Both the position numbers and the translations under genes were made by a program. Shown piece after piece: positions 16,480-62,828 of a DNA stretch of 64,000 nucleotides (position 1 is the stretch's first letter; each line of letters starts with the position of its first letter). The notes under the pieces are model-generated. The model did no database searches. It worked only from the letters and a program-made list of their open reading frames with translations, and was not told the DNA's origin. This stretch comes from Treponema sp. Marseille-Q4130 (GTDB lineage: Bacteria; Spirochaetota; Spirochaetia; Treponematales; Treponemataceae): NCBI RefSeq assembly GCF_014334325.1, contig NZ_JACSET010000002.1, forward strand, positions 62,001 through 126,000, in the 5' to 3' direction.

Positions 16480-18087
16480 CTATTTTTTTGCCGAATACTC
16501 GCACGCGGCTTTAATAAATTCGCGAAAGAGCGGACCCGCGCGGTTCGGGCGGCTTTTGAATTCCGGATGAAACTGCACGCCGACCATCCACGGGTGATCG
16601 GGAGCTTCGCATATTTCCACTAAATCGCGCTCGGGATTTACGCCCGAGACGACGAGACCCGCTTGTATCAATCTGTCGCGGTAGGCATTGTTGAATTCGT
16701 AGCGATGGCGGTGGCGCTCCCAAATCGTTTCAGCCCCGTACGCTTTTTCGGCAAGCGTACCCGGCATTACTTTGCATTCGTATTTTCCGAGACGCAGCGT
16801 ACCTCCGAGAATCTTTCCGTTTTGATCGGGCATCAAATCGATGACGGGATCGCTCGTCGATTTATCCATCTCCGAAGAGTTCGCGTCTTTTAAGCCGAGC
16901 ACGTTTCTCGCGTATTCAATGACTTGAATCTGCATGCCGAGGCATATGCCGAAGTAGGGCACTTTGTGAGTTCTCGCGTACTTCGCGGCGTAGACCATAC
17001 CTTCGATACCGCGTCCGCCGAAGCCGCCCGGAAGGATGATGCCGTCGGCGGCCTTTAAACGCGCGAGGGCGGCTTTATCGTCGGGGAGCGTTTCGGATCC
17101 GATCCAATCGATCGTTACGTCCGCTTCGTTGTGGATGCCGCCGTGCACGAGCGATTCGGCAACCGAAAGGTATGCGTCGTGGAGTTCGACGTATTTTCCG
17201 ACGAGCGCTACGGTCACTTTGCGTTTCGGGTTGTTGAATTTGTCGACCATCTTTTGCCAATCGGCGAGATCGGGTACCGGGTTTTTAAGGGAGAGCGCTT
17301 CGCATACCGCTTTGCCGAGTCCTTCGTTTTCCATTTGAAGCGGCACTTCGTAGATGGATCGCGCGGTAAGATTTTGTATGACGTGATTCGTGTCGACGTT
17401 GCAAAAAGATGCGAGCCGTTCGCGGGTCGCCGTATCGATCGGCTCTTCGGTTCGGAGCATAATGATGTCGGGCTGGATGCCGAGCTCCTGCAGCTCTTTT
17501 ACCGAGTGCTGCGTCGGCTTTGTTTTGAGCTCATGCGATTTTTTCATGTAAGGCACGAGCGTCAAGTGAATGTAGCAGCAGTTTTCTTCGCCGACTTTAT
17601 ATTTCATCTGGCGGATCGCTTCCATAAACGGCAGCGATTCTATGTCGCCGACGGTACCGCCTATTTCCGTGATGATGACGTCCGCTTTCGTCTCTTCCGT
17701 CGAAAGCATCATGCGGCGGAGGATCTCTTCGGTGATATTCGGAATGACCTGCACCGTGCCGCCGTGAAATCCGCCTTCGCGCTCTTTGTTTAAAACGGCG
17801 AGGTAGACGCGACCTGCGGTCGTATTCGATGATTGGGAAAGAGAAGCGTCGGTAAAGCGCTCGTAGTGCCCCAAGTCGAGGTCGGTTTCGGCTCCGTCGT
17901 CGGTGACGAAAACTTCGCCGTGCTGGTAGGGATTCATCGTTCCCGGATCGATGTTCAAGTACGGGTCGAATTTTTGATTGACGACTTTGTAGCCTCGGCT
18001 TTTTAAGATGAGCCCGATAGATGCCGCAGCGATGCCTTTGCCGAGTCCCGAAACGACTCCGCCGGTGATGAATATATACTTAGCCAT
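16480..18087 (-). CDS. pyrG: CTP synthase
   Basis: A 535-residue CTP synthase that aminates UTP to CTP with glutamine and ATP. The N-terminal synthetase domain begins [25 protein letters not shown]; the C-terminal amidotransferase has the nucleophile Cys in [11 protein letters not shown] and His/Glu in FHPEFKSRP. The ATG at 18087 matches family starts; the longer open frame to 18282 lies in brkB. There is no ribosome-binding site. A TATAAT lies 7 nt before the ATG inside the end of the upstream gene, so a leaderless transcript is predicted in addition to read-through from brkB. Confidence 0.95.
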
Positions 18088-18094
18088 TTTTATT

Positions 18095-18123
18095 ATTATA
18101 GCAGGAAAGTTTCCGTTCGTCCA
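18095..18123 (-). promoter_or_regulatory. Promoter of pyrG inside the 3' end of brkB (leaderless type)
   Basis: Minus strand TGGACG (18118-18123), 17-bp spacer, TATAAT (18095-18100), then 7 nt and the pyrG ATG. The predicted transcription start coincides with the start codon. No Shine-Dalgarno is present. Confidence 0.5.
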
Positions 18124-19394
18124 TAAACTCGCGAAACATATTCGGATATGTGCGACAGCGCTTTTTCGGCCGTTTTGTGATTTATTTCGAGAAGGCTCCG
18201 AAACTCTTCGGCCGAAATCTTCATCAGTTTGCAGTCGGTTTCCGCTTTTGCTTCCGATGTGCGCACCTGATCGAGTATGCACGTCTCTTCTCCGAAAAAA
18301 GATCCCGTATCGCAGTAGGAAAGGTTTCCGTTTCTGTTGATTCGCACTGCGCCGCTGACGACGTAATACGAATCGTCGGAGCGGTCGTTCTTTGCATAGA
18401 TGATCGAACCCGCTTTATAATTTTCGACGTTATTCTTGTTCATAATCGCCGACGGCGTGATAAAGAGGGTGCGCTTTACGATCGAATTGAGTTTCGTGTC
18501 GTCGCGGTCGGGCAGAAGATATAATTCGCTTAAAAGCAGCGGATCAAAAAATTGTACTATATATACCACTTGCGCGAAGATAAAAAACAGCGTAAAGAAA
18601 ATATACGTTTGAAATAAAAAAATCATAACCCCGCTCAAAACGCCGTAAATGATATTGTAATTCGCTATGTTTAAAAATTCATTCGTCAATTTTGCCGCTG
18701 CAAAAAACGAAAGCGTGCACAGCGCGGAGCAGGCTGCGCAGAGTTTTGCACGGGGTTTCGTTTCCGACGCATAGCGGTAGGCGAGCAGCACGATGATAAA
18801 GATGAGTGCGAACTCGGCTGCGGTGATGAATGTGCCGGGCGCGACTCCGAAAAAGGGATGAAGCGTTTCAGACAGCGATGCAAGAGGGGAAAGCATAAAA
18901 AAATTTCTGAACGCAAAAACCGCAAGTACGATGATCGTCGCGATGACGACGAGCGCAAGCTCTCCGGTGACGATGAGCGCATGGTTGAAGATCGCGCGGG
19001 ATTTTATTTTTTTATGAAAAATGCGGCGCATGCCCTGCATGACCGCTGCGAATGATTTTCTCGACATCAGCACGATAAAAAGGGCGAGTACGAATTCGAT
19101 CCGGCCGAAGGTTTTTACTTTCAGTATACCGTCGATAAAGGATTCGGCGTCGAACATCGTTTTGTATTCGGAAATACGCGATAAAACCGAATCGATGATT
19201 TCCGGCGAGGCATGGGTGATGCGCACGAGGACGGCGAGTACCGTCATCACGATCGGGATAAACGAAAAGAGAAAACCGAACGCACAGGAAGCCGCGCACG
19301 TGTAGAGATTGTTCCGCGCGTAAAACGACGCCGTCAAATAGATGAGCTGACCGACCGTATTTTTTGCCGAGCGTTTTTTATGCCGTCTTTTCAT
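18096..19394 (-). CDS. BrkB/YihY family membrane protein fused to a cyclic-nucleotide-binding-type domain
   Basis: A 432-residue fusion. Residues about 15-285 are a BrkB (YihY) domain with about six membrane segments ([35 protein letters not shown] is the typical late motif). Residues about 310-425 are a CRP/PKA-type cNMP-binding fold: [25 protein letters not shown] and the phosphate-cassette-like [19 protein letters not shown]. The BrkB family has no settled function. The fusion suggests gating by a small ligand on the cytoplasmic side, which is inference. It lies 8 nt before pyrG and 24 nt after asnS on the same strand. Confidence 0.85.
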
Positions 19395-19403
19395 GAACGG
19401 CTT

Positions 19404-19432
19404 ATTATAGCGCGCTTTTTAAAAATCCGCCA
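19404..19432 (-). promoter_or_regulatory. Possible promoter of the brkB fusion gene
   Basis: A perfect TATAAT (19404-19409, minus strand) lies 9 nt before the ATG. The element at the -35 position (GGCGGA) is poor. No ribosome-binding site is seen. A weaker example of the leaderless arrangement. Confidence 0.3.
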
Positions 19433-20870
19433 GCTTCGGCGCGCGCGGATAGGGGATGACGTCGCGGAGGTTCGACATACCGGTAACGTAGCGGAGGAGG
19501 CGCTCGAATCCGAGGCCGAAACCCGAATGCGGTACCGTGCCGAACCTGCGCAAGTCGAGATACCACGTATAATTCGACATATCCATATTGCGCTCGTTAC
19601 ATGCAGCCAGCAGTTTGTCGTAATTTTCTTCGCGCTCGCTTCCGCCGATTATTTCGCCGATGCCCGGAACGAGGACGTCGAGGGCTTTTACCGTTTTGCC
19701 GTCGTCGTTTTGTTTCATATAAAACGCTTTGATCGCTTTTGGATAATTGTAAACCATGACGGGGCATTTGTAGATTTGCTCGGTGAGGTAGCGCTCGTGT
19801 TCGGTTTGAATATCGCAGCCCCAAAACGGCTTGTATTCGAATTTATCGGCGTGTTTTTCGAGCGCTTCGATCGCTTCGGTGTACGAAATCCGCTTAAACG
19901 GCGTTTCGGCGACGTGTTCGAGCATTGCGATGAGACCGTTTTGAATACGTTTGTCGAAGAATTCCAAATCGCTCCGGCACTTTTCGAGCGCCCAGCGCAA
20001 AAGGTATTGGATAAAGCTTTCGGCCAAATCCATATCGTCGTCCAAATCGAAAAAGGCCATTTCGGGTTCTATCATCCAAAATTCGGACAAGTGGCGCGGA
20101 GTATTCGAATTTTCTGCGCGAAACGTCGGTCCGAATGTGTACACGCGCGAAAGGGCGGTCGCAAGCGTTTCCGCTTCGAGCTGTCCGCTCACCGTGAGGC
20201 TCGCTTTTTTGCCGAAAAAGTCTTTCGAATAATCGACGAGGGATGAAGCGCTTTCGGCCTTTTTGCCGGCATTCCCCGCTTTGACACCGATCTCCGCGAT
20301 CTTTTCGAGAGACAGCGTTGTCACTTGAAACATTTCGCCCGCGCCTTCGGCGTCGCTGCACGTGATGATCGGTGCGTTGATATATTGGAAGCCGTTTTCC
20401 TGAAAAAATGAGTGAACGGCGAAGGCCATCTGATTGCGCATACGGAATACCGCACCGAAAGTATTTGTCCGCGCTCTGAGGTGAGCGTTTTCGCGGAGAT
20501 ATTCCATCGACATCTTGTTTTTTTGAAGCGGATAAGCGTCGCTTGGACATTCTCCGAGAACGATAAGCTTTTCGAGCGTCACTTCGACGGCCTGTCCCGA
20601 CGCGGGCGAAGGGACGAGGAGCCCTTCGGCGCGCACCGAAGCGCCGGTATTCGCTTTTGCAATATTTTCTTCTATCGCTTTGACGTCGGCTCCGGCGGAA
20701 GGGGACGTACGGTCGAAAGTCAGCTGGATCGATGCAAACGAGCTGCCGTCGTTTACTTGAATGAATACGAGATTTTTCGAATCGCGCACGGTTCTCACCC
20801 AGCCGCACACGGTGACGGCTTTTCCGTCGGGCTTTGATGCAAGCAGATCTTTTATGAGCGTCGGTTTCAT
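19419..20870 (-). CDS. asnS: Asparaginyl-tRNA synthetase
   Basis: A 483-residue class IIb aminoacyl-tRNA synthetase that charges tRNA-Asn. The N-terminal OB-fold anticodon domain has VTVCGWVRTVRDSKNLVFIQVNDG. Class II motif 2 is seen as FGPTFRAENSNTPRHLSEFWMIEPEM and motif 3 as GFGLGFERLLRYVTG. The ATG at 20870 fits family starts; an in-frame extension to 21008 has no support. There is no ribosome-binding site, but a promoter with its -10 only 7 nt upstream predicts a leaderless mRNA. Confidence 0.95.
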   Translation of the reverse strand: MKPTLIKDLLASKPDGKAVTVCGWVRTVRDSKNLVFIQVNDGSSFASIQLTFDRTSPSAGADVKAIEENIAKANTGASVRAEGLLVPSPASGQAVEVTLEKLIVLGECPSDAYPLQKNKMSMEYLRENAHLRARTNTFGAVFRMRNQMAFAVHSFFQENGFQYINAPIITCSDAEGAGEMFQVTTLSLEKIAEIGVKAGNAGKKAESASSLVDYSKDFFGKKASLTVSGQLEAETLATALSRVYTFGPTFRAENSNTPRHLSEFWMIEPEMAFFDLDDDMDLAESFIQYLLRWALEKCRSDLEFFDKRIQNGLIAMLEHVAETPFKRISYTEAIEALEKHADKFEYKPFWGCDIQTEHERYLTEQIYKCPVMVYNYPKAIKAFYMKQNDDGKTVKALDVLVPGIGEIIGGSEREENYDKLLAACNERNMDMSNYTWYLDLRRFGTVPHSGFGLGFERLLRYVTGMSNLRDVIPYPRAPKLADF

Positions 20871-20877
20871 GCGTACG

Positions 20878-20906
20878 ATTGTAGCGATTTTATGTTGTTT
20901 GAGCAA
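20878..20906 (-). promoter_or_regulatory. Promoter of asnS (leaderless type)
   Basis: Minus strand TTGCTC (20901-20906), 17-bp spacer, TACAAT (20878-20883), 7 nt, then ATG. Transcription is predicted to start at the A of the ATG. Confidence 0.55.
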
Positions 20907-21073: not shown

Positions 21074-22900
21074 TTAAAACGCATCGATAAACGCTTTTTT
21101 GTTTTTGAATTCGAACACACGATAAAAATTGTCCGAATAGACCTGAGTCCCGTTTTTAAATACGGCACGCTGGGAAGCATCGTTGTATTGTTTTTGAGTT
21201 ACAAGGAAAAAAATCGGCTCATTCGCTTTGTAATCATCGCGATAAAAACGCTCGGGTGTCAGCCATAAATCGCATTTAAATTTAGTTGGAATATATTTGA
21301 CGCCGTCTATCGTATCATAATAAAGATTTCCGAATTCAACTCTGCCGTCCGTCATCATCGTAAAAACATTTGCATTCCAAAACGTCGCATAACCGAAATC
21401 GTAGTTGTCGTCGAGAAAGCGGCATACGGCGCGCTTATCAAGATTCCCATCTGAAGTTAAAACATCGATATAAGTGGTAAATGCCCCTAAAATGAGGGCA
21501 ACAGAAAACGACACGCCGACAAGGTATTTTTTCAGCACGGAAAGATTTGGGCTTTCTAGAAACAGCGCAAAGCATGGGACACAATAAACAAGAGACGGAA
21601 TAAAATATCGATCCTTGTATTCTGTATGAATTATTGCAAATGAATTTAAAACAATCATAACTGCAGCTATGATAAAGAAAAATCGTTTATGTTCCGATTC
21701 ATGTTTTTTTATGCATACGACAAAACACACGATAAAAAATATAAACGCGCTATATAGCATAACGTTGTTTATCCCTGCAGGTCCGAAAACAAGCACACCG
21801 TTATGATAACCGAATATCTCAAATATCGATCGATGAACATCTGAAAAACTGACGTCTCCGATAGTATTGAATCGTATATCGTTCCATGTTGAAAATGAAA
21901 AAAGCCTCTTCAGCACCAATGAATTTACAATATATCCGAAACCGCTTAAAAAAATATTCATCACGGCATAGAACGTCGGCCTGTCTTTTATAAAAAAATG
22001 GGAAAAATCAAATGCTTCTTTTCGGTTTACAAGACGATAAACGGAAAAAGCGACAATTGCAAGTGCAATAGGAAACTGAAAATTCAAAATGTATCGTATA
22101 CCCGACGCTCCTGAAATAAAGGCAAGCGTGAAAAAAACTATCGCAAACGTTTTTCTTTTTTTTGCCGAAAGCTCCGAATATGCGAGTGACAGAAAAAGCC
22201 CCGTATATATAAAACTTATCGTGATGTGCGGAATATAATAATTTCCGAATTGCACAATATTCCACATCGTACGCGACCAAGGTATAAAAATAAACAGTGC
22301 ACACAGAAGCTTTATCCATCGGTTTTTTACACCGAGAGTTCCGAGCAAAAACCACAACGAGAGCGGCAACGCGAAACACAAAATAATCGCAGAGACGGCT
22401 TTTACCGTAAGCCAACTCGACGTAAATGCAAAGAGGAACGATGTAACAAGCTGCGTGTTTAAAAGGCGCAATTCCGTCGAATAATGCCATGAGCGCGGCC
22501 AAAATGTTTTATGCGTAAAGCATTCTTTGGCAAGCATGAGTTCAGATGCCATATCGCTGTCCATGTTTTGTATGCAGCGCGCAAAAGCACAGAATTCTGT
22601 CAAAATCACAGCTGCGATAAAAAACTGCACGATCAAAATTATCTTCGTTTTTTTTGAAAATTTAAGAAAAAACAAAGCGTCAAAAAAAATAACCGTAAAA
22701 ATCGGAAATCCGATAAGCGGAGCAATTGTCTGCCGAACCTTTGCAGGATTTATAGGACGATGTAACATTTGTGTTTCGACAACGGTTTGAATATATGTGA
22801 AAATCTGTGCGGAATATGCGATCAAAGCTACGCTCACTGCAAGAGCTGCTGTAGATACAATTAAAAGGGTTATATCCGTTTTTTTTGAAAAAGCGTTCAT
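21074..22900 (-). CDS. Polytopic GT-C-type membrane protein, probable glycosyltransferase
   Basis: A 608-residue membrane protein with about 11-12 membrane segments and a C-terminal soluble tail of about 110 residues. The first large loop carries CIQNMDSDMASELMLAKE, an acidic motif where GT-C enzymes that use polyprenyl-phosphate sugars keep their catalytic acids. No sequence-level family could be named. It lies between 28-bp direct repeats, and its A+T-rich composition suggests later insertion. AAGGAG supports the ATG; the promoter is at 23011-23040. Likely role: transfer of a sugar to a surface glycan outside the inner membrane. Confidence 0.65.
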   Translation of the reverse strand: MNAFSKKTDITLLIVSTAALAVSVALIAYSAQIFTYIQTVVETQMLHRPINPAKVRQTIAPLIGFPIFTVIFFDALFFLKFSKKTKIILIVQFFIAAVILTEFCAFARCIQNMDSDMASELMLAKECFTHKTFWPRSWHYSTELRLLNTQLVTSFLFAFTSSWLTVKAVSAIILCFALPLSLWFLLGTLGVKNRWIKLLCALFIFIPWSRTMWNIVQFGNYYIPHITISFIYTGLFLSLAYSELSAKKRKTFAIVFFTLAFISGASGIRYILNFQFPIALAIVAFSVYRLVNRKEAFDFSHFFIKDRPTFYAVMNIFLSGFGYIVNSLVLKRLFSFSTWNDIRFNTIGDVSFSDVHRSIFEIFGYHNGVLVFGPAGINNVMLYSAFIFFIVCFVVCIKKHESEHKRFFFIIAAVMIVLNSFAIIHTEYKDRYFIPSLVYCVPCFALFLESPNLSVLKKYLVGVSFSVALILGAFTTYIDVLTSDGNLDKRAVCRFLDDNYDFGYATFWNANVFTMMTDGRVEFGNLYYDTIDGVKYIPTKFKCDLWLTPERFYRDDYKANEPIFFLVTQKQYNDASQRAVFKNGTQVYSDNFYRVFEFKNKKAFIDAF

Positions 22901-24322: not shown

Positions 24323-25321
24323 TTATCGTTTGAGTCGTTTTACTTTTTTTGCCAATGCACGAATGCCCCCTGCCAGCATTTCGAAGAATTTAAAGACGTG
24401 CGGTGCGTGGGCTTTCATATCGGCGATGGTAAACAAAAGCGGCGACTGCATGATGCTTACGATGCGCTTGTCGTTTACGAGATGCACTTTATTAAATTGA
24501 AACTTCGGAGATTCGATCATGGTTTTTATATCGTCAGGAATCGTTCCCGCCTCTTTTATTCTTTTGAGAAGAGATGCGTCCGCAAGTTTGTAGTAGGGAA
24601 CGTAATTTTTTCCGCCGAATTCGGACGAATAGTAGTGAATGATTTTTGCGTCTTTCAGATACGCGAGCCCCCCGTGGCTCAGCTGGCAGTTCCATTCGCC
24701 GTCCAAAAACGCATTTCCGAATCGCATCCGATACCATGCTTCATTAAATGCGCTTTGGTCGTGATGATCTTTTTTTACCGTATAGCCGTATTTCCACAGT
24801 TCGTGCCATAATTTAAAAAATTGCTTACTCGTTTCGGTATTTTTAACGAAGAATACGCCGCTGTTTATATGGAAACCGTTTTTTTTCGTTCCGCAAAAGC
24901 CGAGTTTTTTATCGCGTTTTAAAAAATAATCTTTGTGCACATGGTCGCCCAGCATAACGTGACCGTCGAGTACGCCGGCTATATCGGCTGTATGCTTTTC
25001 AACTGAAGATAGTTCGCCGGTTATTACGGTATCGCAATCGATATATAAAAAATCGTCGTGAATATAATCGGGAATCGTCGTCTTCAATATACGCGAGCGG
25101 GCGACGCCGTTCACGGTATCGTCGAATGAAACGGGGATGACCGACGCTGCGTAGGATTTGAGCTCGGAACGCTTGCCGAAAAAAGAAGCGGCCGTTGTAT
25201 CGTCGACAAGAAAAACGACGTCGGCATCTTTCATGTGACGCCTGAGCGAATAGACGGACATAAGCGCCTGTTCGTAATAGAGATCGTTCGGACTCGATAC
25301 CAAAACGTATACATACTTCAT
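24323..25321 (-). CDS. Glycosyltransferase family 8
   Basis: A 332-residue cytosolic retaining glycosyltransferase of the GT8 (LgtC/galactosyltransferase) type. It begins YVYVLVSSPNDLYYEQALMSVYSLRRH, has the metal-binding DXD motif as DFLYIDCDTV, then FHINSGVFFV and a C-terminal KIIHYYSS. ATG 25321 overlaps the upstream stop as ATGA, so it is coupled to the preceding GT-C gene; the longer frame to 25414 overlaps that gene and is not needed. Donor and acceptor are unknown. Confidence 0.9.
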   Translation of the reverse strand: MKYVYVLVSSPNDLYYEQALMSVYSLRRHMKDADVVFLVDDTTAASFFGKRSELKSYAASVIPVSFDDTVNGVARSRILKTTIPDYIHDDFLYIDCDTVITGELSSVEKHTADIAGVLDGHVMLGDHVHKDYFLKRDKKLGFCGTKKNGFHINSGVFFVKNTETSKQFFKLWHELWKYGYTVKKDHHDQSAFNEAWYRMRFGNAFLDGEWNCQLSHGGLAYLKDAKIIHYYSSEFGGKNYVPYYKLADASLLKRIKEAGTIPDDIKTMIESPKFQFNKVHLVNDKRIVSIMQSPLLFTIADMKAHAPHVFKFFEMLAGGIRALAKKVKRLKR

Positions 25322-27077: not shown

Positions 27078-27106
27078 ATTTTAATTTGGAATTATATTGT
27101 TGTCAA
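27078..27106 (-). promoter_or_regulatory. Promoter of the second GT-C gene (leaderless type)
   Basis: Minus strand TTGACA (27101-27106), 17-bp spacer, TAAAAT (27078-27083), 8 nt, then ATG. It overlaps the last codon of the upstream gene. Confidence 0.6.
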
Positions 27107-28047
27107 TTCGGGTTTTCATACATACACATAATATGGTCAAAAAACGTTTTTTCGGCAGATTTTTTTTCAGACAGTTTATATGAAAGTTTATGTATGTCCG
27201 ACATTCTTTGTATTTGATTAAAACGTGTTTCCGAATACGGCGTACTCAGTTCTCTTTGAAGGATATGCGGCGGCAAATCGGGAAACCACGGAACGGCTTT
27301 CCAGTTTTTCGGATATCGTTCGGTTGCCAGTTTGAAAAAGAAATAAAAGACAAAATAATGCAGTAAAAAATTATGACTTTTCCAATAATCGAATAGATAG
27401 TCTCTGGTCAACGTTAAGATAGGGTTGTTTTTTTCAGAATGGATAAACCAGTTCTGTGCTGCAATACCGGGATCATTTCGCTCTCGTGTTTGAAATACAA
27501 AAAGCGGTACATTAAATGCATATTCAGGATATTTTGTACAAAATACGGTTGCATCGATCCATGTTCCGCCGTAGGTTATCAATAACTGTAATCGTAAAAG
27601 GTCTGAAAAATGAGTATCGGATATAACCCCCTTTCGATATTTTTCTTTTATATATTCCGGAAAATCGACGTAGTCGTATATGTTCTTATAGGTAATTATA
27701 ATAATTTTATTATTCGGCATATTTTTATGTAACGATTTTAGACAACATTTACAAAGCGGCGGCGCATTTTCAATTCCTTGCAGCCAACACCACCAAATTA
27801 TATTATTTTGCTCAGTACCTGTGCCGGGAACAGGAGAGTTTACGGTAAAATTTTTATATTTATACTTAAGATAGGTGAATATAATCCAATCTTTATTGGT
27901 TTTTTTCAAATCGGGATCGAGCGATTTGCCGGTGAATATAAACCAGCATTTTAAACAAAGAAAACGCAGATAAGCGATTATTTTTTGAATCAGATCTTTG
28001 TAGTTCTTTTGTTGAAACAGTATCTTCGATTTCGTAATTAAATTCAT
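27103..28047 (-). CDS. Capsular polysaccharide synthesis / GT32-type glycosyltransferase
   Basis: A 314-residue protein of the capsular polysaccharide synthesis family, related to GT32 sugar transferases. NNIIWWCWLQGIENAPPLCKCCLKSLHKN is the family opening (I.W.CW.QG...P) and SDLLRLQLLITYGGTWIDATVFCT carries the DXD-like metal motif. It probably adds one sugar to a surface glycan on the cytoplasmic side. The start ATG at 28047 has only a weak ribosome-binding site; the 10-nt gap to the upstream SMR gene suggests operon transcription. Confidence 0.8.
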   Translation of the reverse strand: MNLITKSKILFQQKNYKDLIQKIIAYLRFLCLKCWFIFTGKSLDPDLKKTNKDWIIFTYLKYKYKNFTVNSPVPGTGTEQNNIIWWCWLQGIENAPPLCKCCLKSLHKNMPNNKIIIITYKNIYDYVDFPEYIKEKYRKGVISDTHFSDLLRLQLLITYGGTWIDATVFCTKYPEYAFNVPLFVFQTRERNDPGIAAQNWFIHSEKNNPILTLTRDYLFDYWKSHNFLLHYFVFYFFFKLATERYPKNWKAVPWFPDLPPHILQRELSTPYSETRFNQIQRMSDIHKLSYKLSEKKSAEKTFFDHIMCMYENPN

Positions 28048-29706: not shown

Positions 29707-30837
29707 TTATCGGTTGCTGCCGTATTGTCGTATTGCTGTAATAACCGCGTCCTGTTCTTCAGGACGGATACCGTAATATAAGGGTAAGCGTATAAGCCGT
29801 TCGCTGTATTGTGTCGTATAGATGTCTTTCCCGTCAAAACGACCGTAAATTATCCCTGCAGGAGCACTGTGCAACGGAATATAATGAAAAACAGATTGAA
29901 TTTCTTTTTTCCTAAGATATGCTATGAGGTCATTTCGCATTACAGGATCTTTTGCGATGAGGTAAAAGATATGCGCATTATGTTTACATTCAGAGGGCAC
30001 TAAGGGCAAGCGGAGTACGGACTCTACGGCGTCACCTGTAAACGCATTAAAATAGGTATTCCATACGTTCATGCGATAATTTTGTATTATCTCTGCACTT
30101 TCTAGTTGGCCCCATAAATAAGCGGCATTTAAATCACTCGGTAAATAAGAAGACCCGTAAGTGCGCCACGTGTATTTATCTACTTCACCGCGGATAAATT
30201 TACTTCTATCTGTTCCTTTTTCACGGATCATTTCCGCTTCTTCCGAATCTTTGTCATGATTGATGATGAGAGCACCGCCTTCGCCCATACTAAGGTTTTT
30301 TGTTTCGTGAAACGATAGACAGCCGAAATCACCGATCGTGCCTGCAAGCCGGTTTTTATATGTGGAAAATATTGCCTGTGCCGCATCTTCAATAACAAAA
30401 ATGTTGTGTCGGCGCGCTATATCCATAATAGTATCCATTTCGCAGACGACACCGGCGTAATGTACGACTACGATAGCTTTTGTCTTTGGCGTAATTGCTT
30501 TTTCGATTTTATTTTCATCGATATTCAACGTGTCGGGGCGGATATCAACGAAAACGAGCTTCGCTCCGCGTTGTACAAATGCATCGGCTGTCGAACAGAA
30601 TGTGTAAGAGGGAAGGATCACTTCATCGCCGTTTTTAACATGACAAAGCAGAGCCGCCATTTCAAGCGCGGAAGTACAGGATGTTGTGAGTAATATTTTT
30701 CTGTTAAATTTTTTTTGAAGGTATTCGGTACATCGTTTAGTAAACGGGCCGTCGCCGCAAAGTTTACGATTATGTATCGCCGCTTGAATATATTTTATTT
30801 CAGTTCCAACTACCGGAGGAATATTAAATGGAATCAT
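29707..30837 (-). CDS. wecE: dTDP-4-amino-4,6-dideoxygalactose transaminase (WecE/RffA type)
   Basis: A 376-residue PLP enzyme of the DegT/DnrJ/EryC1/StrS family. The start MIPFNIPPVVGTEIKYIQAAIHNRKLCGDGPFTKRC is characteristic of the WecE/RffA subgroup, which aminates dTDP-4-keto-6-deoxyglucose. The PLP Lys is in SFHETKNLSMGEGGAL and the PLP-phosphate region is TTSCTSALEMAAL. ATG 30837 is preferred over the ATG at 30849, because the latter lies within the -10 element. There is no ribosome-binding site, so the mRNA is probably leaderless. The product sugar may be the one carried by the GT2/SMR module. Confidence 0.88.
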   Translation of the reverse strand: MIPFNIPPVVGTEIKYIQAAIHNRKLCGDGPFTKRCTEYLQKKFNRKILLTTSCTSALEMAALLCHVKNGDEVILPSYTFCSTADAFVQRGAKLVFVDIRPDTLNIDENKIEKAITPKTKAIVVVHYAGVVCEMDTIMDIARRHNIFVIEDAAQAIFSTYKNRLAGTIGDFGCLSFHETKNLSMGEGGALIINHDKDSEEAEMIREKGTDRSKFIRGEVDKYTWRTYGSSYLPSDLNAAYLWGQLESAEIIQNYRMNVWNTYFNAFTGDAVESVLRLPLVPSECKHNAHIFYLIAKDPVMRNDLIAYLRKKEIQSVFHYIPLHSAPAGIIYGRFDGKDIYTTQYSERLIRLPLYYGIRPEEQDAVITAIRQYGSNR

Positions 30838-30844
30838 ATTATTT

Positions 30845-30874
30845 ATCATAATAGTTGCATATTATTGATGTCAA
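30845..30874 (-). promoter_or_regulatory. Promoter of wecE (leaderless type)
   Basis: Minus strand TTGACA (30869-30874), 18-bp spacer, TATGAT (30845-30850), 7 nt, then ATG 30837. The -10 element contains the upstream alternative ATG, which therefore cannot be the start of this transcript. Confidence 0.6.
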
Positions 30875-30900: not shown

Positions 30901-32355
30901 TTATCTTTTATGTATCCTTCGAGAGACGGATGCGAGCAAAAGTTTTGCCGTGTCGTTTTGCAGTAGAATTTCCACTGCAGCATATATTGCCGAGCCTGTT
31001 GCAAGACCGGCTGCTATCTGAAGCAGTGCGCTTGGAATTATCTTAATTAAAAAACAGACGGAAACGTACATAGCGATTGTTCCGATAGCGCTTTGAAGGA
31101 TCTGTTTCCCTAAATATGAAAGAAGTTTTTTTAAATGAGAAAATGAGCAGAATAATTGAATGACGGTGATCGAGAATTCAACGATCAGCGTTGAGATGCC
31201 CGCACCGAAAACGCCCCAGAGCGGAATAAAGATATAATTCAAGACGATGTTGAGAATGGTACCGAAAATCTGCGAATATAAAATAAAACGCTCTTTGCGG
31301 TTCGGCGTTAGGATTACATTATTTAAAAAAGACGCAAACGAAACGGCGATGATTATCGGCGCCATGCAATACAAAACAGGGAGCGCCGGCAAATACTGTA
31401 CACCGCTGAACACTGTTATAAGCGGTTTTCCGATGACGATAAGACCTGCGGTCGCCGGAAACGAAAAAAACGATACGACGCCTATAGCTTTTTTTACCAT
31501 ATCGTCGTATTTTTGCATTTGCCCCAGTTCTATATAGTAGGAGCTGCGCGGAAGCAGCGTGCCGGTAATCGCGGTGATCATCTGCACGACCAATCTGCGT
31601 ATTTTACTTGCTGCGGTATAATAGCCGACGGAGCTGTCGTCCATCATAAAGCCGAGCATAACGGTATCCATAGCCGAATGAATTTTTACTGCACATACCA
31701 TACCGAAAAAAACCGATATTGGTTTAATATGTTTTTTTATTTCAAGCGTCGTTTTTTCAAAAATATTGATAAATTTTCTTGCATATACAATATTACAGAC
31801 ATTCATGCCGGCGTTTGAAATGATGCCCATAACCGCATACGCTACATAATCGTTTTTGCTGCGCACGAAGATAAATAAAAAGGCTAAGCTCACTATTTGA
31901 AAAAAAGCGGAGCGGAGTGTTATATATCGGTATTCTTCTTCAACGGCATACAGCCACTCCAAACCCATGGTGATAAACAGTATTTTGGAAGAACAGACGA
32001 TAAGCAAAATTTGATAGTCATGAAATTTCCGGATGCACAAAAGGCTTACCGCGAACAAAATATAGGCGATGATCGTTGAAACGCCGTTTATGAGGAGAAT
32101 TTCACGCGAGAATTTATTCAGCTTGAAAGGATCGTCCCGTATTTTTGCCGCTTCCCGTGCCGCATAGGAGCTGATGCCGAGTCCCGCGAGCATGACGAGA
32201 TAATCGATGACGGAGTTCGCAAAATTTATTTTACCGATTCCATCCGGCATCAATATGCGCGATGCATACGGAAATGAAATAATCGGAAATGCGAGATTCA
32301 TAAACGAACGTATGAAATTATAAAACGCATTCTTTTTCAACGATTTTTGCGTCAT
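30901..32355 (-). CDS. wzx: Polysaccharide flippase (Wzx, MATE-fold)
   Basis: A 484-residue polytopic protein with about 12-14 membrane segments, of the polysaccharide transport family that flips lipid-linked oligosaccharide units across the inner membrane. It begins NAFYNFIRSFMNLAFPIISFPYASRILMPDGIGKINFANSVIDY, the typical Wzx N-terminus, and has GMVCAVKIHSAMDTVMLGFMMDDSSVGYYTAASKI. No Wzy polymerase was found next to it. There is no ribosome-binding site; a promoter with its -10 8 nt before the ATG predicts a leaderless mRNA. Confidence 0.88.
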   Translation of the reverse strand: MTQKSLKKNAFYNFIRSFMNLAFPIISFPYASRILMPDGIGKINFANSVIDYLVMLAGLGISSYAAREAAKIRDDPFKLNKFSREILLINGVSTIIAYILFAVSLLCIRKFHDYQILLIVCSSKILFITMGLEWLYAVEEEYRYITLRSAFFQIVSLAFLFIFVRSKNDYVAYAVMGIISNAGMNVCNIVYARKFINIFEKTTLEIKKHIKPISVFFGMVCAVKIHSAMDTVMLGFMMDDSSVGYYTAASKIRRLVVQMITAITGTLLPRSSYYIELGQMQKYDDMVKKAIGVVSFFSFPATAGLIVIGKPLITVFSGVQYLPALPVLYCMAPIIIAVSFASFLNNVILTPNRKERFILYSQIFGTILNIVLNYIFIPLWGVFGAGISTLIVEFSITVIQLFCSFSHLKKLLSYLGKQILQSAIGTIAMYVSVCFLIKIIPSALLQIAAGLATGSAIYAAVEILLQNDTAKLLLASVSRRIHKR

Positions 32356-32363
32356 AGTATTTT

Positions 32364-32392
32364 ATGATAACAGATTTTGCGTGAGCCGACAA
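32364..32392 (-). promoter_or_regulatory. Promoter of wzx (leaderless type)
   Basis: Minus strand TTGTCG (32387-32392), 17-bp spacer, TATCAT (32364-32369), 8 nt, then ATG 32355. Confidence 0.55.
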
Positions 32393-35132: not shown

Positions 35133-36832
35133 AAATTGTATTTCGCTCTCAGCGAAAATTCAAAGCCGTATACGTAGTTTTTCCGTATATAGTTCCGATT
35201 GGAAATATACGTATACCCGATGGTACCGGTGAGACACAGCGATTTGAAAAAGAAAAACGACGTTTCGGCACCCCACGTGAGATAGGCTTCGTAATTTGCC
35301 CAATAATCTTTTTTTATTGTGCTGTCACCGGGTTTGGCACTCTTATATACGGCTTTATTGAGAATGTAATTTATATCGGGGCAGTAGCGGTGAAAAAACA
35401 CCATCGTGCTTCCGCGCGGATAATATACCCGGTATCCTAAAAATTGACTGTTCCCGAAGTACCCGGATCCTGCGCCGAGCGACTGTCCGCGGTTCGTATA
35501 CCCGTGCTTCATCTGGTGATGTGCATAATAGCCCATGTATTCCCATTGCAGTTGAAAATCCTGCGACATTTCGAAATTGTTCCATTCGAACAAAAGCTCG
35601 CTGTGCAGATTTACGCCCGCGAGTTTGTTCGGAAACAGTTTATAGAGCGGCAATGGAATATATTGATGAAGCCCGACGGTATAGACAGCCGTGTGGAAGG
35701 GATTTCTTGTTTCACTTGTTGTATAATCGTCAATGCCGAGTTCACCGTAGACTGTAAAACCGATTTGCGGAAAACGCCACGCAGCATTAAACGCGATCTT
35801 TTGATCTTCTCCGTCACCGCTTACGTCGTTTGCGTGTGATGTCGTAAACAGTCTGCCGATATATTTGAGATTTTTCCAATTCCATTTTGTCAAAAAAATT
35901 CTGTTGAGTCCGACCGTAAGACCCGGTATAAACGACGGCGCATAGCTCAATGAAATACCGTTTATCATCGTATGATCGTTCGAAGCATCTTTATCGAAAT
36001 AATCCGATTCGGTCAGCATCCCGGTCCACATACGCGCTTCGATATCGCCGACGTACCATTTGAGCCACGGCAGCCGTATGCTCGTGCGGCGCACACCGAA
36101 ATCGATTTTCGGATAGCTTGCGGCATTGTTGCTGCCGAGCATGGGATTGAGGAGGGCGGGGCCGAGCCACGGCGACTGCGTCCCGAAGCCTACGGTTAGG
36201 GTTTTCCACGTATAGCGGATTTCCGTATCTCCCCAATCGAACGTAAAAAACGGTGCGTCTCCGAACCGCTGTGGCGCATCTATGCCGGCATAGCTTCCGT
36301 CGGATAATTTATATCCCCAAAAATAGCCGTATTCACTGGCATTCGGATCGGTAACTTCACGATTTTTGAGTTCAAACGCCGCATTTTGCGAAAAAGAAAG
36401 CTGCGGCTTTAGCGTGAGCTCGACACCGTACGCTTGCAATCGCGCACCGCCGGTCAACGATGTATTATAGCCGCGCCCTTGCCACAGTGCGCCGTCGTTT
36501 TGCCCGTAAGGAGCGGCCGTATTGACACTCTGGTACCATTCGGGACCGTAGATTTTCCACGAAAGGTTTTTATTTCCGTTGATAAAGCGAGTTGTCCCGA
36601 GATTGTTGTTTTGCCATATATTGCGCGCATCGTTTTGCGCTTCTTCGGAAAGTTCCCATACCGAATCGCTTAAAGTTCTGTAGTTTAGGGTAGGGCGCTC
36701 GACGAGACCCTGCAGCGAGAGAAAATCGTAATAGTTTTCTTCGATCGATTTTAACGTCTCTTGTGCGGATATGCTGCCGTATGCAAGCGCAAAAACGAGC
36801 GGCAACGCCGAAAGTTTTTTTGAGATATTCAT
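35129..36832 (-). CDS. Wzi-like outer membrane capsule assembly protein
   Basis: A 567-residue exported protein with a signal peptide (MNISKKLSALPLVFALAYGSISA, cleavage near residue 23) and a beta-barrel-like body with many alternating aromatic strands. FGTQSPWLGPALLNPMLGSNNAASYP resembles the Wzi family loop, and the protein ends in an aromatic residue (KYNF), as outer-membrane barrels do. Wzi anchors capsule at the cell surface, which fits the neighbouring glycan locus. ATG 36832 is chosen over 36883 because of the signal peptide and because the -10 element lies between them. Leaderless mRNA predicted. Confidence 0.8.
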   Translation of the reverse strand: MNISKKLSALPLVFALAYGSISAQETLKSIEENYYDFLSLQGLVERPTLNYRTLSDSVWELSEEAQNDARNIWQNNNLGTTRFINGNKNLSWKIYGPEWYQSVNTAAPYGQNDGALWQGRGYNTSLTGGARLQAYGVELTLKPQLSFSQNAAFELKNREVTDPNASEYGYFWGYKLSDGSYAGIDAPQRFGDAPFFTFDWGDTEIRYTWKTLTVGFGTQSPWLGPALLNPMLGSNNAASYPKIDFGVRRTSIRLPWLKWYVGDIEARMWTGMLTESDYFDKDASNDHTMINGISLSYAPSFIPGLTVGLNRIFLTKWNWKNLKYIGRLFTTSHANDVSGDGEDQKIAFNAAWRFPQIGFTVYGELGIDDYTTSETRNPFHTAVYTVGLHQYIPLPLYKLFPNKLAGVNLHSELLFEWNNFEMSQDFQLQWEYMGYYAHHQMKHGYTNRGQSLGAGSGYFGNSQFLGYRVYYPRGSTMVFFHRYCPDINYILNKAVYKSAKPGDSTIKKDYWANYEAYLTWGAETSFFFFKSLCLTGTIGYTYISNRNYIRKNYVYGFEFSLRAKYNF

Positions 36833-36839
36833 TGCTACG

Positions 36840-36868
36840 ATAATAATCGATTGCATGGGGATCGTCAA
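36840..36868 (-). promoter_or_regulatory. Promoter of the wzi-like gene (leaderless type)
   Basis: Minus strand TTGACG (36863-36868), 17-bp spacer, TATTAT (36840-36845), 7 nt, then ATG 36832. It is back to back with the tRNA-Phe promoter, the two -35 elements being 8 bp apart. Confidence 0.6.
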
Positions 36869-49415: not shown

Positions 49416-49444
49416 TTGTGCGTTTTTTGCGCTTGTGCTAAAAT
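49416..49444 (+). promoter_or_regulatory. Promoter of murC (leaderless type)
   Basis: TTGTGC (49416-49421), 17-bp spacer, TAAAAT (49439-49444), 6 nt, then ATG 49451. No ribosome-binding site is seen. Confidence 0.5.
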
Positions 49445-49450
49445 AGCGCC

Positions 49451-50947
49451 ATGTCATCGATTTTTCTTCCGAAAGATTTTACCGGCGTTCGCGTTCACTT
49501 CGTCGGCATAAAAGGCACCGGTATGGCGGCCCTCGTCGAAATCCTCAAAAAACGCGGCGCCCTTATAACCGGGAGCGATGTTGCGGAAAGGTTTTACACC
49601 GACGCCGTCCTCGAAAAGCTCGGCATACGCGCCCAAGCGTTTTCGGAAAGTAACATCACAGGCGATATCGATTACGTCATCTATTCGTCGGCATACGATC
49701 CTGAAAAAAATCCCGACTTGATCGAAGCGCGCTCGCACGGCATCCCCTGCCTTTTATACACCGAAGCGCTCGGAGAAGTTTCCGCGCAGTCTTACAGCGC
49801 CGCGATTTCGGGCGTGCACGGTAAAACGAGTACGACCGGAATCGTCGGAACGATTTTCGAAGAAACGGATATCCCCGTGCAAGTGCTTGCGGGCTCGTCT
49901 ATCGCGTCGTTCGGCGAAAGCTGCACGATGACGACGAAAACTTACGACATAAAAAAATCTCGCAATTATTTTGTCGCGGAAACTTGCGAATACCGGCGCC
50001 ACTTTATGTCCTTCCATCCTCAAAAGATAATTTTGACGAGCGTCGAAAGCGATCATCAGGATTATTATCCGACCTATGAAGACATAAAAAACGCCTTTAT
50101 CGATTTTATCTGCAAGCTGCCCTCATGCGGCACCCTCATATACTGCGCGGACGACAGGGGCGCCGTCGAAGCGGCCGAAGCGGCATATAAAAAGAGGGGC
50201 GACATCGAAATGATCCCTTATGGGGAAAGCGCAGAGGGCGATTACCGCTTGACGATCGGTAAAACCGAAAACGAAGCGCAGCATTTTTCGATCGGCTTTT
50301 TGGGAGAGGCTTCACTTTACGTTCCCGGAAAACACGAAGTGCTCGACGCGTGCGCGGCTTCCGCCCTCGTGCGGGAAATTATTAAAAGCGACGGAAAAGA
50401 TCCCGATCTCTATCGCGAACGGATCGTACGCGGCCTTGCAAATTTCAGAGGCGGAAAGCGGCGGAGCGAAGTTATCGGAAAAGCGTTCGCAGGTAAAAAC
50501 TCCGTCGTCTTTATCGACGATTACGGTCATCACCCGACGGCGATCAAAACGACGCTCAAAGGTTTCCGCGAATTTTACGGCGGCAGAAAAATCATCGTCG
50601 ATTTTATGTCGCATACCTATACGCGCACTGCATCTCTCCTCGAAGAATTCGCTTCGGCTTTTTCCGATGCCGATGAAGTGATCCTGCATAAAATATACGC
50701 TTCCGCGCGCGAAAGCGCCGAAGGAAGGAGCGTTACCGGAAAAACGCTTTTCGAAAAAACAAAAGCGCATCACGGAAACGTTCATTATTTTGAAGAAGTG
50801 CTCGACGCGAAAGACTTTGCGCTTTCAGAATTGGCAAAACCGCTTTCAGTCGATTTTCCGAACGGCTGTCTTTTCGTAACGATGGGCGCGGGCGACAACT
50901 GGAAACTCGGTACCGCTCTTTTTGCCGCGTGCAAGGATGCGCTATGA
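49451..50947 (+). CDS. murC: UDP-N-acetylmuramate--L-alanine ligase
   Basis: A 498-residue Mur ligase that adds L-alanine to UDP-MurNAc. It has VHFVGIKGTGMAALVEILKKRG (UDP-binding), the ATP loop SGVHGKTSTTG, ETCEYRRHF and the C-terminal FIDDYGHHPTAIKTTL. The related enzyme Mpl, which recycles murein tripeptide, has a similar layout and is the main alternative. It begins an operon with yicC, cmk and mutY, overlapping yicC by 4 nt. Confidence 0.88.
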   Translation: MSSIFLPKDFTGVRVHFVGIKGTGMAALVEILKKRGALITGSDVAERFYTDAVLEKLGIRAQAFSESNITGDIDYVIYSSAYDPEKNPDLIEARSHGIPCLLYTEALGEVSAQSYSAAISGVHGKTSTTGIVGTIFEETDIPVQVLAGSSIASFGESCTMTTKTYDIKKSRNYFVAETCEYRRHFMSFHPQKIILTSVESDHQDYYPTYEDIKNAFIDFICKLPSCGTLIYCADDRGAVEAAEAAYKKRGDIEMIPYGESAEGDYRLTIGKTENEAQHFSIGFLGEASLYVPGKHEVLDACAASALVREIIKSDGKDPDLYRERIVRGLANFRGGKRRSEVIGKAFAGKNSVVFIDDYGHHPTAIKTTLKGFREFYGGRKIIVDFMSHTYTRTASLLEEFASAFSDADEVILHKIYASARESAEGRSVTGKTLFEKTKAHHGNVHYFEEVLDAKDFALSELAKPLSVDFPNGCLFVTMGAGDNWKLGTALFAACKDAL

Positions 50948-59748: not shown

Positions 59749-60992
59749 GTTTTTCGTACCCGCGTGTTTTCCATGATGATTTTACGTGCGGCGATGTAGC
59801 GCATCCAGTCCCGCCGTCCCGCGTTCTCAAGGTATGCGATAAAATCGTCGTCGAGATATTTTATGACGAATTGATATGCCGTCGTGATGTACGTCGTTAT
59901 GTAGTGCGCTTTCGTTTCGTGCAGGATCGCGATGCCGCCTTTTTCTTTTTTATAATAGATCACTTTGTATAAAAGTCCGTCGCCCGTATATTCGTGCGGA
60001 GCGTCGGGCGTGTCAAAGGCGGGCTTTGTACGCTGCGCGCTTATCGTATTGCCGTTCGCGTAGAGTATGAGCTTCGAAAAACGCCGTTCCGATTTTTTTC
60101 CGATAAACTCGCGTTCCTGTACTACGTGCGGGTGATTTGCCCAAATGATGTCAGCTCCGCAGTCGAGCAGTTTGTAATAATACGCGCGCTGCGAAGCGGA
60201 GACGCTCCGGATGTATTCCGGAACGTTCGCATGAATCGAAAGGATAAAAATATCGCACTGGTTTTCCGCTCTGATGCGCCGTATACGGTTTCCGAACGCT
60301 TCCCTCGCATCGGGCGCGGGCGGCACGTAGTTCATGTATTCGATATAATCTTTTTCGTTCAGCACTTCCGTTACCGCGCAGAAAATGATCGTCCATCCGT
60401 TTTTTTTAATAATTTTATACCCGATCGCATCTCCGCCCGATTTTTTTAATCCCGAAAAAAAGACTTCGCGATCCGTGCCTTTGTGTGCGCTCTCCGTTTT
60501 TTCCGCCCACTCGCGCGTATGCTTCATACCCGAAAGCCCCTGATCGTTCGAGTGATTGTTTACGAGAGAAAAGACATTAAAACCCGCGCTGATCGCCGCT
60601 TCGGGATATTCGGAGTGCATGTTGAAGCGCGGATATGTCGAGTACGGCAGGCTGTCGTCGACGGGAGATTCGATGTTCGCAAAAGAAAAATCACAAGAGA
60701 GGGCGAGCGGGGTGATGTCTTTCCAGATGAGTGAATAATCGCTCATCGAATAGTTCGGCTTATGCGCCATGATATCGCCTGCAAACAAAAGCGTAAGGTT
60801 GTGCTGTATCTCTTCGCGATCGTTTTTTTTGCTTCCGAAAGAAGGTGCGGAATTTTCTTCGGCCGAAACGGAAAGGTTTTGCCCGCTCGGCGTTTCAGGC
60901 GCTTCCGATGCGGGCCTTTGCTTCGGAACAGTTTTACACGAGGCGAGGACGATGATGCAAAAAAGCAGGTAAAAGCTGTTCCTGATTTTCAT
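59739..60992 (-). CDS. CapA family metallophosphatase-fold lipoprotein
   Basis: A 417-residue lipoprotein (lipobox LASC, Cys19). It belongs to the CapA/PgsA family: LLFAGDIMAHKPN, CDFSFANIESPV, GFNVFSLVNNHSNDQG and GADIIWANHPHVVQE are the metal-site motifs. CapA takes part in poly-gamma-glutamate capsule formation in bacilli; other members have unknown roles. It lies between pta and the helicase in one operon. A polyglutamate role cannot be assumed, as no capB or capC is present. Confidence 0.87.
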   Translation of the reverse strand: MKIRNSFYLLFCIIVLASCKTVPKQRPASEAPETPSGQNLSVSAEENSAPSFGSKKNDREEIQHNLTLLFAGDIMAHKPNYSMSDYSLIWKDITPLALSCDFSFANIESPVDDSLPYSTYPRFNMHSEYPEAAISAGFNVFSLVNNHSNDQGLSGMKHTREWAEKTESAHKGTDREVFFSGLKKSGGDAIGYKIIKKNGWTIIFCAVTEVLNEKDYIEYMNYVPPAPDAREAFGNRIRRIRAENQCDIFILSIHANVPEYIRSVSASQRAYYYKLLDCGADIIWANHPHVVQEREFIGKKSERRFSKLILYANGNTISAQRTKPAFDTPDAPHEYTGDGLLYKVIYYKKEKGGIAILHETKAHYITTYITTAYQFVIKYLDDDFIAYLENAGRRDWMRYIAARKIIMENTRVRKTWL

Positions 60993-62258: not shown

Positions 62259-62433
62259 ATTTCCTCCTCTATGCGCCCTTACAGCAAAGAGCGCTGCTTC
62301 GGTATTGCCACAATTACTATAATAGAATATGCGCTTTTATAATAAACCCTCGCACATAAAATAGCAAGGGATAGGCAATTTATTAATAAGGAAAAAAATT
62401 GATCTTTACCCCTGTATGTCATTGCCCGCCGTA

Positions 62434-62462
62434 TTGACCGAGCAATTTTTTCACGTTAAAGT
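62434..62462 (+). promoter_or_regulatory. Promoter of the bactofilin gene (leaderless type)
   Basis: TTGACC (62434-62439), 17-bp spacer, TAAAGT (62457-62462), 6 nt, then ATG 62469. No ribosome-binding site is seen. Confidence 0.6.
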
Positions 62463-62468
62463 GTAGCC

Positions 62469-62828
62469 ATGTTCGATGTAAAAGATATAGATCTGTTCGA
62501 TCTCGAAGAAGAAGCGTTCGATACCGTCATAGAAAGCGATATCGCGTTTACGGGAAGCATCCGTTTTGCAAAGCCGTTTATGATTCGCGGCAAGGTAAAG
62601 GGCAGCATCGATGCGACGAGCGATCTGGTTATAGACAGCGGTGCGTCCGTCGAAGCGGACATAAAGGCGCTCCGCGTACTCGTCAAAGGAAAAGTGAAGG
62701 GCAACGTCGCCGCAAAAAAAATGGTATTCGTTACGGCGACGGGTTCGCTCGACGGCGATATCACGGCGGAACAGGTGGTGCTTGAACCGGGCAGCACTTT
62801 TACCGGCAAATGTACGATGGTAAAATAG
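62469..62828 (+). CDS. Bactofilin family cytoskeletal protein
   Basis: A 119-residue bactofilin (polymer-forming cytoskeletal protein). The body is a short beta-helix with repeated G-X-hydrophobic turns: IAFTGSIRFAKPFMIRGKVKGSIDATSDLVIDSGASVEADIKA, then VLVKGKVKGNVAAKKMVFVTATGSLDGDITAEQVVLEPGSTFTGKC. Bactofilins form nucleotide-free filaments at the inner membrane that shape the cell wall. Mature length fits the family. The TPR protein starts 1 bp after its stop codon. Confidence 0.9.
   Translation: MFDVKDIDLFDLEEEAFDTVIESDIAFTGSIRFAKPFMIRGKVKGSIDATSDLVIDSGASVEADIKALRVLVKGKVKGNVAAKKMVFVTATGSLDGDITAEQVVLEPGSTFTGKCTMVK

What the first reader, a model, noticed from the sequence alone, without database searches (positions are those of the whole stretch)
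18087..62471. Recurrent leaderless promoter architecture in a spirochaete
At least eight genes have a -35/-10 pair with 17-18-bp spacing whose -10 ends 6-8 nt before the start codon, with no Shine-Dalgarno: pyrG (gap 7), asnS (7), GT-C at 25318 (8), wecE (7), wzx (8), wzi-like (7), murC (6) and bactofilin (6). brkB (9) may be a ninth. Transcription would start at or next to the ATG. Other genes here with promoters (fumC, guaA, ldh, ugd, glgC, the SUMF1 operon, GT-C at 21074, pta) have longer leaders and good ribosome-binding sites, so two initiation modes seem to coexist. Several leaderless genes are envelope or nucleotide/translation genes.
Basis: partly seen in the sequence, partly recalled or inferred. 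Interest (0 to 1): 0.75.

Follow-up and report, generated by a model that had tools for sequence, protein, structure and literature searches.

The report
Leaderless gene starts in oral spirochaete
In an oral Treponema about one gene in ten seems to be transcribed from the first letter of its start codon, with no ribosome-binding leader, and for some core genes such as dnaA and a bactofilin this layout is kept across most of the family.

Summary
Confirmed and extended. The window lies in Treponema socranskii or a very near relative (asnS 100 % identical). All eight promoters named, and brkB, are present; each scores in the top 0.3 % of in-frame internal ATGs. Genome test, on 31 % of the genome: strong -35/-10 pairs pile up 6-9 nt before ATGs (27, 22, 11, 9 of 575 genes at gaps 6, 7, 8, 9; 1 at gap 5; about 3 per gap elsewhere), 11- to 95-fold above internal ATGs. 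These genes lack Shine-Dalgarno (SD) motifs, tend to begin transcription units, and carry a -35 signal at 17 bp. About 10 % of ATG genes are involved. Orthologues often keep the layout: bactofilin 52 of 59, dnaA 25 of 26, aspS 23 of 29, murC 22 of 30; pyrG only 3 of 30, 19 of the other 27 having an SD. Leaderless mRNAs are known in bacteria, Leptospira and Borrelia included, so this is a new member of a known kind. My searches listed no report for Treponema, nor of such gene-by-gene conservation. No RNA 5' ends were available; start sites are inferred.

The parts
18085..18123 (-). pyrG leaderless promoter: TGGACG, 17 bp, TATAAT with TGn, gap 7, ATG 18087; -10 contains brkB stop
   Evidence: leaderless in 3 of 30 orthologues
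20868..20906 (-). asnS leaderless promoter: TTGCTC, 17 bp, TACAAT, gap 7, ATG 20870
   Evidence: of six other treponeme loci L107-L112, four read as leaderless by eye (L108-L111, gaps 8-9), L112 is weaker, L107 has a leader with SD
   Evidence: no Pfam match; orthologues not compared
30835..30874 (-). wecE-like aminotransferase: TTGACA, 18 bp, TATGAT, gap 7, ATG 30837
   Evidence: orthologues not compared
32353..32392 (-). wzx-like flippase: TTGTCG, 17 bp, TATCAT, gap 8, ATG 32355
   Evidence: orthologues not compared
36830..36868 (-). wzi-like gene: TTGACG, 17 bp, TATTAT, gap 7, ATG 36832
   Evidence: orthologues not compared
49416..49453 (+). murC leaderless promoter: TTGTGC, 17 bp, TAAAAT with TGn, gap 6, ATG 49451
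   Evidence: 22 of 30 orthologues leaderless
62434..62471 (+). bactofilin leaderless promoter: TTGACC, 17 bp, TAAAGT, gap 6, ATG 62469
   Evidence: 52 of 59 family orthologues leaderless
19392..19433 (-). brkB (with cNMP-binding domain): CTGGCG, 18 bp, TATAAT, gap 9, ATG 19394; weak -35
   Evidence: orthologues not compared

Best explanation
Roughly a tenth of the ATG-start genes of this Treponema are transcribed from housekeeping (sigma-70-type) promoters whose -10 box sits 6-9 nt before the start codon, so that RNA polymerase starts at, or one to three nucleotides before, the A of ATG. The mRNA has no SD and is presumably read by direct binding of the ribosome to the 5'-terminal AUG. Many of the other genes use SD leaders. 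For some core genes (bactofilin, dnaA, aspS, murC) the layout is kept in most orthologues examined; for others (pyrG, guaA) orthologues differ between a box next to the ATG and an SD-leadered start. Shown: the position of the boxes, their excess over chance, lack of SD, first-gene position, conservation. Inferred: the actual +1, and translation by leaderless initiation.
For: Peak at gaps 6-9 with a hard edge at 6. -35 signal at 17 bp in genes picked on the -10 alone: TTG in 28 of 70, against 0 and 2 of 70 at spacers 14 and 20. No comparable peak before GTG/TTG starts (0, 0, 0, 2 of 74 at gaps 6-9). SD in 3 of 67 against 259 of 450; divergent upstream neighbour 30 of 67 against 85 of 448. Pyrimidine at -1 in 55 of 64. 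Orthologues: bactofilin 52 of 59, dnaA 25 of 26, aspS 23 of 29, murC 22 of 30. TATAAT at gap 6-8 exceeds gap 16-18 in 33 of 33 family genomes, ratio 1.39, but not in f22, ratio 1.005 over 25 genomes.
Against: No 5' ends, ribosome profiles or N-terminal peptides were available. pyrG is leaderless in only 3 of 30 (identity 96-100 %), and its -10 contains the brkB stop. Seven bactofilin orthologues (six in genus g12), three aspS and two murC orthologues score as SD; three aspS and six murC are unclear. In five of the 22 leaderless murC loci a pair farther upstream scores better than the near one. Outside the family bactofilin is mostly SD-scored (12 of 20; 4 leaderless, 4 unclear). guaA, meant as a leadered control, is not a clean negative: 11 of 28 have TANNNT at gap 5. 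Absence of an SD is partly forced, because the -10 occupies the same stretch. Start codons came from a simple coding-score caller.
Confidence: 0.87

Rival explanations
1. The promoters are real but transcription starts 2-8 nt upstream, giving very short leaders; translation is then non-SD initiation on short leaders rather than on a 5'-terminal AUG.
For: Gaps 8-9 make up 20 of 69 hits. In T. denticola one sigma-70 start was mapped 14 nt before a start codon (PMC9481697, passages read).
Against: Peak at 6-7 and back to baseline (3) at gap 10; pyrimidine at -1.
Confidence: 0.2
2. The start codons are misplaced: the box is an ordinary promoter and the true start is a downstream codon with an SD.
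For: Start calls rest on coding score; in several orthologues other starts are possible (offsets).
Against: The signal is rare at internal ATGs. N-termini are alike from this ATG: second codon Phe in 28 and Tyr in 2 of 30 bactofilins, Glu in 27 of 29 aspS, Lys in 6 of 7 treponeme asnS.
Confidence: 0.05
3. AT-rich sequence before genes gives TATAAT-like matches by chance.
For: Upstream regions give about 3 hits per gap, so some 12 of the 69 hits are expected by chance.
Against: 27 and 22 at gaps 6 and 7 against a maximum of 7 at any gap from 15 to 65; near-fixed gap in diverged orthologues.
Confidence: 0.01
4. A second, more distant promoter with a leader makes most of the mRNA and the near promoter is minor.
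For: The upstream pair scores better than the near one in 5 of 22 leaderless murC loci and 1 of 22 leaderless bactofilin loci (L246); L191 has a second pair scoring 10.5 at gap 49. pyrG could be co-transcribed with brkB.
Against: In none of 25 leaderless dnaA, 23 aspS (one tie) and 30 bactofilin loci does another pair score better; no SD is kept for use by such a leader.
Confidence: 0.1

Closest known systems
TA-led (leaderless) genes of Zheng et al. 2011, PMC3160421 (abstract, passages and section 7 read)
   Same: TANNNT about 10-12 nt before the start codon, taken as leaderless; Spirochaetes listed, 6 of 18 genomes with a mean of 3.9 % (1.8-6.9).
   Different: The word Treponema does not occur in its main text; here about 10 % of ATG genes by a -35/-10 score, and conservation is followed gene by gene.
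Leaderless mRNAs of Leptospira interrogans by dRNA-seq, PMC5243855 (abstract and passages read)
   Same: Spirochaete with 430-450 genes whose start site lies within 10 nt of the start codon.
   Different: Mapped by RNA there; apart from sigma-54 no common promoter motif was found around the mapped starts, while here the promoter is clear but RNA is lacking.
-10 region next to ORFs in Deinococcus-Thermus, PMC12340547 (abstract and passages read)
   Same: -10 motif with a set distance to the ORF, tested by experiment, driving leaderless expression.
   Different: There about 30 % of ORFs and a -35 that enhances when added; here a -35 at 17 bp is part of the signal.
Leaderless transcripts of Borrelia burgdorferi, mentioned in PMC10618245 (one passage read)
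   Same: Same phylum, said there to occur with high frequency.
   Different: A remark in a ribosome-structure paper; primary data not seen.

Membership tests
Leaderless bacterial genes | mRNA 5' end at or within a few nt of the start codon | not testable with these tools
   No RNA data; inferred from -10 position.
Leaderless bacterial genes | -10 element about 6-9 nt before the start codon, above chance | tested here: met
   69 hits (67 genes) at gaps 6-9 against about 12 expected from other gaps.
Leaderless bacterial genes | no SD sequence | tested here: met
   SD core of 4 or more in 3 of 67 against 259 of 450; partly forced by the position of the -10.
Leaderless bacterial genes | start codon AUG preferred | tested here: met
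   Score >= 8 at gaps 6-9: 69 hits in 575 ATG genes, 2 in 74 GTG/TTG genes, where about 1.9 are expected; GTG cases occur in orthologues (L274, L275, L347, L349; L084).
Leaderless bacterial genes | gene lies first in its transcription unit | tested here: met
   Same-strand neighbour within 20 nt: 3 of 37 against 131 of 363. Judged from gene positions only.
Leaderless bacterial genes | translated from the 5'-terminal AUG | not testable with these tools
   Needs ribosome profiling or N-terminal peptides.
Sigma-70 promoters | TTGACA-like -35 at 16-18 bp from the -10 | tested here: met
   Best spacer 17 in 37, 18 in 14 and 16 in 5 of 70 genes picked on the -10 alone.

The most novel reading that the evidence does not exclude
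In Treponemataceae a set of growth genes (replication initiator dnaA, aminoacyl-tRNA synthetases, CTP/UMP synthesis, peptidoglycan precursors, the bactofilin scaffold) is held leaderless by selection, forming a translational regulon: shifts in the supply of 70S ribosomes or initiation factors would move replication, charging of tRNA and wall building together.
Probability: 0.15. Interest if true: 0.85.

Novelty: new member of a known kind. Interest (0 to 1): 0.52.

Why it matters
Gene starts are commonly annotated with the help of an SD site. If a tenth of the genes are leaderless, start codons, promoter maps and expression cassettes for treponemes need another look. The genes that stay leaderless in most of the family (bactofilin, dnaA, aspS, murC) also make an old question testable: whether a leaderless start is an accident of promoter position or is kept by selection, and how a gene gains or loses its leader while its promoter stays (bactofilin inside and outside the family; pyrG and guaA among genera).

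Tried and rejected
Rejected: chance AT-richness; downstream start codons; a special start-codon context, since the first 45 nt fold about equally in leaderless and SD genes (mean -5.61 and -5.91 kcal/mol) and codons 2-6 are equally A-rich (0.39 and 0.40).

Tried without much gain: near-consensus promoter search of the own genome (18 hits); naming functions with NCBIfam, where many proteins had no match. Not pursued: ribosome and initiation-factor genes, 16S 3' end, structure prediction, orthologues of GT-C, wecE, wzx, wzi and brkB.

Dropped rows: 58 ATG genes with scores from 4 to below 8 are in neither group (67 and 450 of 575; two of the 450 had no neighbour to measure). Three of 64 leaderless genes cross a stretch border and were not named. 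One of 20 matched controls (L034:10624-16311) was left out, so 19 were scanned. One search tallied 130 of the 197 genomes. Orthologue rules were applied to the 30 best loci of pyrG (52 of 60 genomes matched), murC (59), guaA (58), dnaA (54) and aspS (56), and for bactofilin to 59 of 60 genomes (G036 had only a weak match). In one search two of 30 dnaA loci were skipped (N-terminus not aligned) and two had too little upstream DNA, as had one of 30 aspS loci. In one search two of 30 guaA loci had no start.
Full report
What was checked. All nine sites are where it says. I scored them with a plain sigma-70 matrix (E. coli frequencies, recalled). Each lies in the top 0.3 % of 4,333 in-frame internal ATGs and the top 0.7 % of 1,481 ATGs lying 40-220 nt upstream of genes. 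One further window gene, ORF 27103-28047, has a similar box at gap 9.

Where it comes from. The asnS protein is 100 % identical to that of Treponema socranskii subsp. socranskii. The window is part of a 2.79-Mb draft genome in 18 contigs.

The genome test. I took 800 kb more of the genome in stretches, called 650 genes with a coding-score model that sees nothing upstream of the start, and tabulated promoter scores by gap. With TANNNT alone, ATG genes peak at gap 6 (32 of 427) and 7 (21 of 427) against about 10 per gap farther upstream, while GTG/TTG genes do not (4, 2, 2 of 223 at gaps 6-8). That table also shows a smaller rise at gap 0 (19) and gap 14 (18), which I did not explain. After starts were re-chosen with a start-codon prior, 575 ATG genes gave 27, 22, 11 and 9 hits with score >= 8 at gaps 6, 7, 8 and 9, 1 at gap 5 and 3 at gap 10; gaps 15-65 average 3.08 with a maximum of 7. 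Against in-frame internal ATGs this is 26-, 24-, 95- and 11-fold at gaps 6 to 9. The excess is about 57 genes, 9.9 % of 575 (63 or 10.9 % at a threshold of 6). By extrapolation that is some 180-200 genes in the genome.

Independent signs that the boxes are promoters with their start at the ATG. Genes picked on the -10 alone show a -35 at 17 bp: mean -35 score +1.7 there and between -1.1 and -3.8 at the other spacers from 11 to 22; TTG in 28 of 70, against 0 and 2 of 70 three bases to either side. The base before the ATG is a pyrimidine in 55 of 64 leaderless genes, 188 of 280 SD genes (p = 0.002) and 130 of 231 others, as expected for a start on the A. SD cores of four or more bases occur in 3 of 67 against 259 of 450 low-scoring genes; part of this is forced because the -10 occupies the SD stretch. 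Thirty of 67 have a divergent upstream neighbour against 85 of 448, and only 3 of 37 with a same-strand neighbour lie within 20 nt of it, against 131 of 363.

Orthologues that keep the layout. The same rule (score >= 6 at gaps 6-9 and no SD core) was applied to orthologues from 60 family genomes. Bactofilin: 30 of the 30 best loci (gaps 6, 7, 8 in 19, 10, 1) and 22 of the remaining 29, so 52 of 59; six of the seven exceptions are genus g12, with an SD and no good promoter pair near, and the seventh (L252) has the promoter at gap 7 but also an AGGA. dnaA: 25 of 26 scorable loci among the 30 best; the one left over (L319) and two unaligned loci (L314, L324) also show TATAAT at gaps 7, 6 and 6 when read by eye. 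aspS: 23 of 29, three SD, three unclear. murC: 22 of 30, two SD, six unclear; in five of the 22 a pair farther upstream scores better. asnS: of six other treponeme loci four read as leaderless by eye, one has a leader with SD, one is weaker.

Orthologues that switch. pyrG: only the 3 nearly identical species of 30 are leaderless; 19 of the other 27 have an SD core, 14 of them with a promoter pair at gaps 24-37. guaA, which I took as a leadered control, turned out not to be one: 15 of 28 score as SD and 1 as leaderless, but 11 of the 12 unclear loci (genera g3, g5, g6, g14) have TANNNT exactly 5 nt before the ATG, each with a TGn in front. That may be another leaderless form with an extended -10; the own guaA is SD-led. 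Outside the family, 11 of 20 bactofilin loci of other families of the class keep an exact TTGACA in the best pair, but 12 score as SD, 4 as leaderless and 4 as unclear; three of the 12 (L276, L285, L289) have both an SD-like match and a strong pair at gaps 6-8. So the promoter can stay while a leader of some 10-20 nt is gained or lost.

Spread in the phylum. Exact TATAAT at gap 6-8 before ATG was compared with gap 16-18 in 197 genomes. In the own family all 33 genomes have an excess (6,688 against 4,823). Weaker excesses appear in f3 (957 against 765, 4 genomes), f12 (504 against 420, 7) and the small-genome family f6 (3,566 against 3,106; 19 of 22 genomes). None is seen in f22 (20,401 against 20,297; 14 of 25), f30 (15) or f20 (5), and f36 is not significant (which tallied 130 genomes).

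Functions. NCBIfam named dnaA, a recQ fragment, rlmD, pth, aspS, proS, ffh, purE, pyrH, rdgB and a dGTPase among 55 leaderless genes outside the window, and uppP, a polyprenyl synthase, murB and alr among genes that serve the wall. With the window's pyrG, information and nucleotide genes make 12 of 61, against 2 of 49 SD controls (Maf, leuS), p = 0.02; adding those four, murC and bactofilin, 18 of 61 against 2 of 49, p = 0.0004. The classes were drawn up after seeing the names, thirty controls were not matched for first-gene position, and E-value limits differed between calls (1e-20 or 1e-40), so this is a hint only.

What is known. Zheng et al. 2011 (PMC3160421; abstract, passages, section 7) predicted leaderless genes in 6 of 18 Spirochaetes, 1.8-6.9 %. 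dRNA-seq of Leptospira found 430-450 genes with starts within 10 nt (PMC5243855, abstract and passages). A Borrelia ribosome paper says leaderless transcripts are frequent there (PMC10618245, one passage). Nakagawa et al. 2017 (PMC5397173, passages) gives six Spirochaetes a mean of -3.25 in the last of three columns, which I take to be the component it links to leaderless or S1 signals when positive. One T. denticola start was mapped 14 nt from a start codon, with a sigma-70 promoter (PMC9481697, passages). Searches for leaderless with Treponema (14 papers), leaderless mRNA with spirochete, Treponema start sites (3 papers, 15 of 24 listed), leaderless with dnaA or spirochaetes (12 of 111 listed) and bactofilin with leaderless listed no report of leaderless mRNAs in Treponema by title or start of abstract. 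The library holds open-licence papers only, and of these lists I opened only the papers named here.

Verdict. It is a known kind of gene start in a genus where I found no description of it, with clear conservation at single genes.

Noticed in passing
dnaA loci L299, L300, L302-L319 and L324; own dnaA L025:2319-3719: 21 of 30 dnaA loci carry AAAAAAGTAAA between -35 and -10 of the leaderless promoter; L295, L297, L298 (own clade) and L301 lack it. It may be an operator.
   Followed up: partly
window 18096-19394: BrkB-family membrane protein with a C-terminal cyclic-nucleotide-binding domain (Pfam PF03631 plus PF00027).
   Followed up: no
window 18095-18100: The pyrG -10 box TATAAT contains the stop codon of brkB (18096-18098), so the end of one gene is part of the promoter of the next.
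   Followed up: partly
G000:C1:1293-2891: A second CTP-synthase gene, 44 % identical to the window's pyrG; at least 15 of 60 family genomes list a second full-length match.
   Followed up: no
guaA loci L227, L230, L232-L234, L238, L239, L241-L244: 11 of 28 guaA orthologues have TGnTANNNT exactly 5 nt before the ATG, one base closer than the peak in T. socranskii.
   Followed up: partly
L274, L275, L347, L349, L084: Leaderless layout before GTG instead of ATG (bactofilin, aspS, murC).
   Followed up: no
L036:3657-3977: Leaderless ORF of 106 aa that matches only the N-terminal 88 residues or so of RecQ; possibly a broken or misassembled gene.
   Followed up: no
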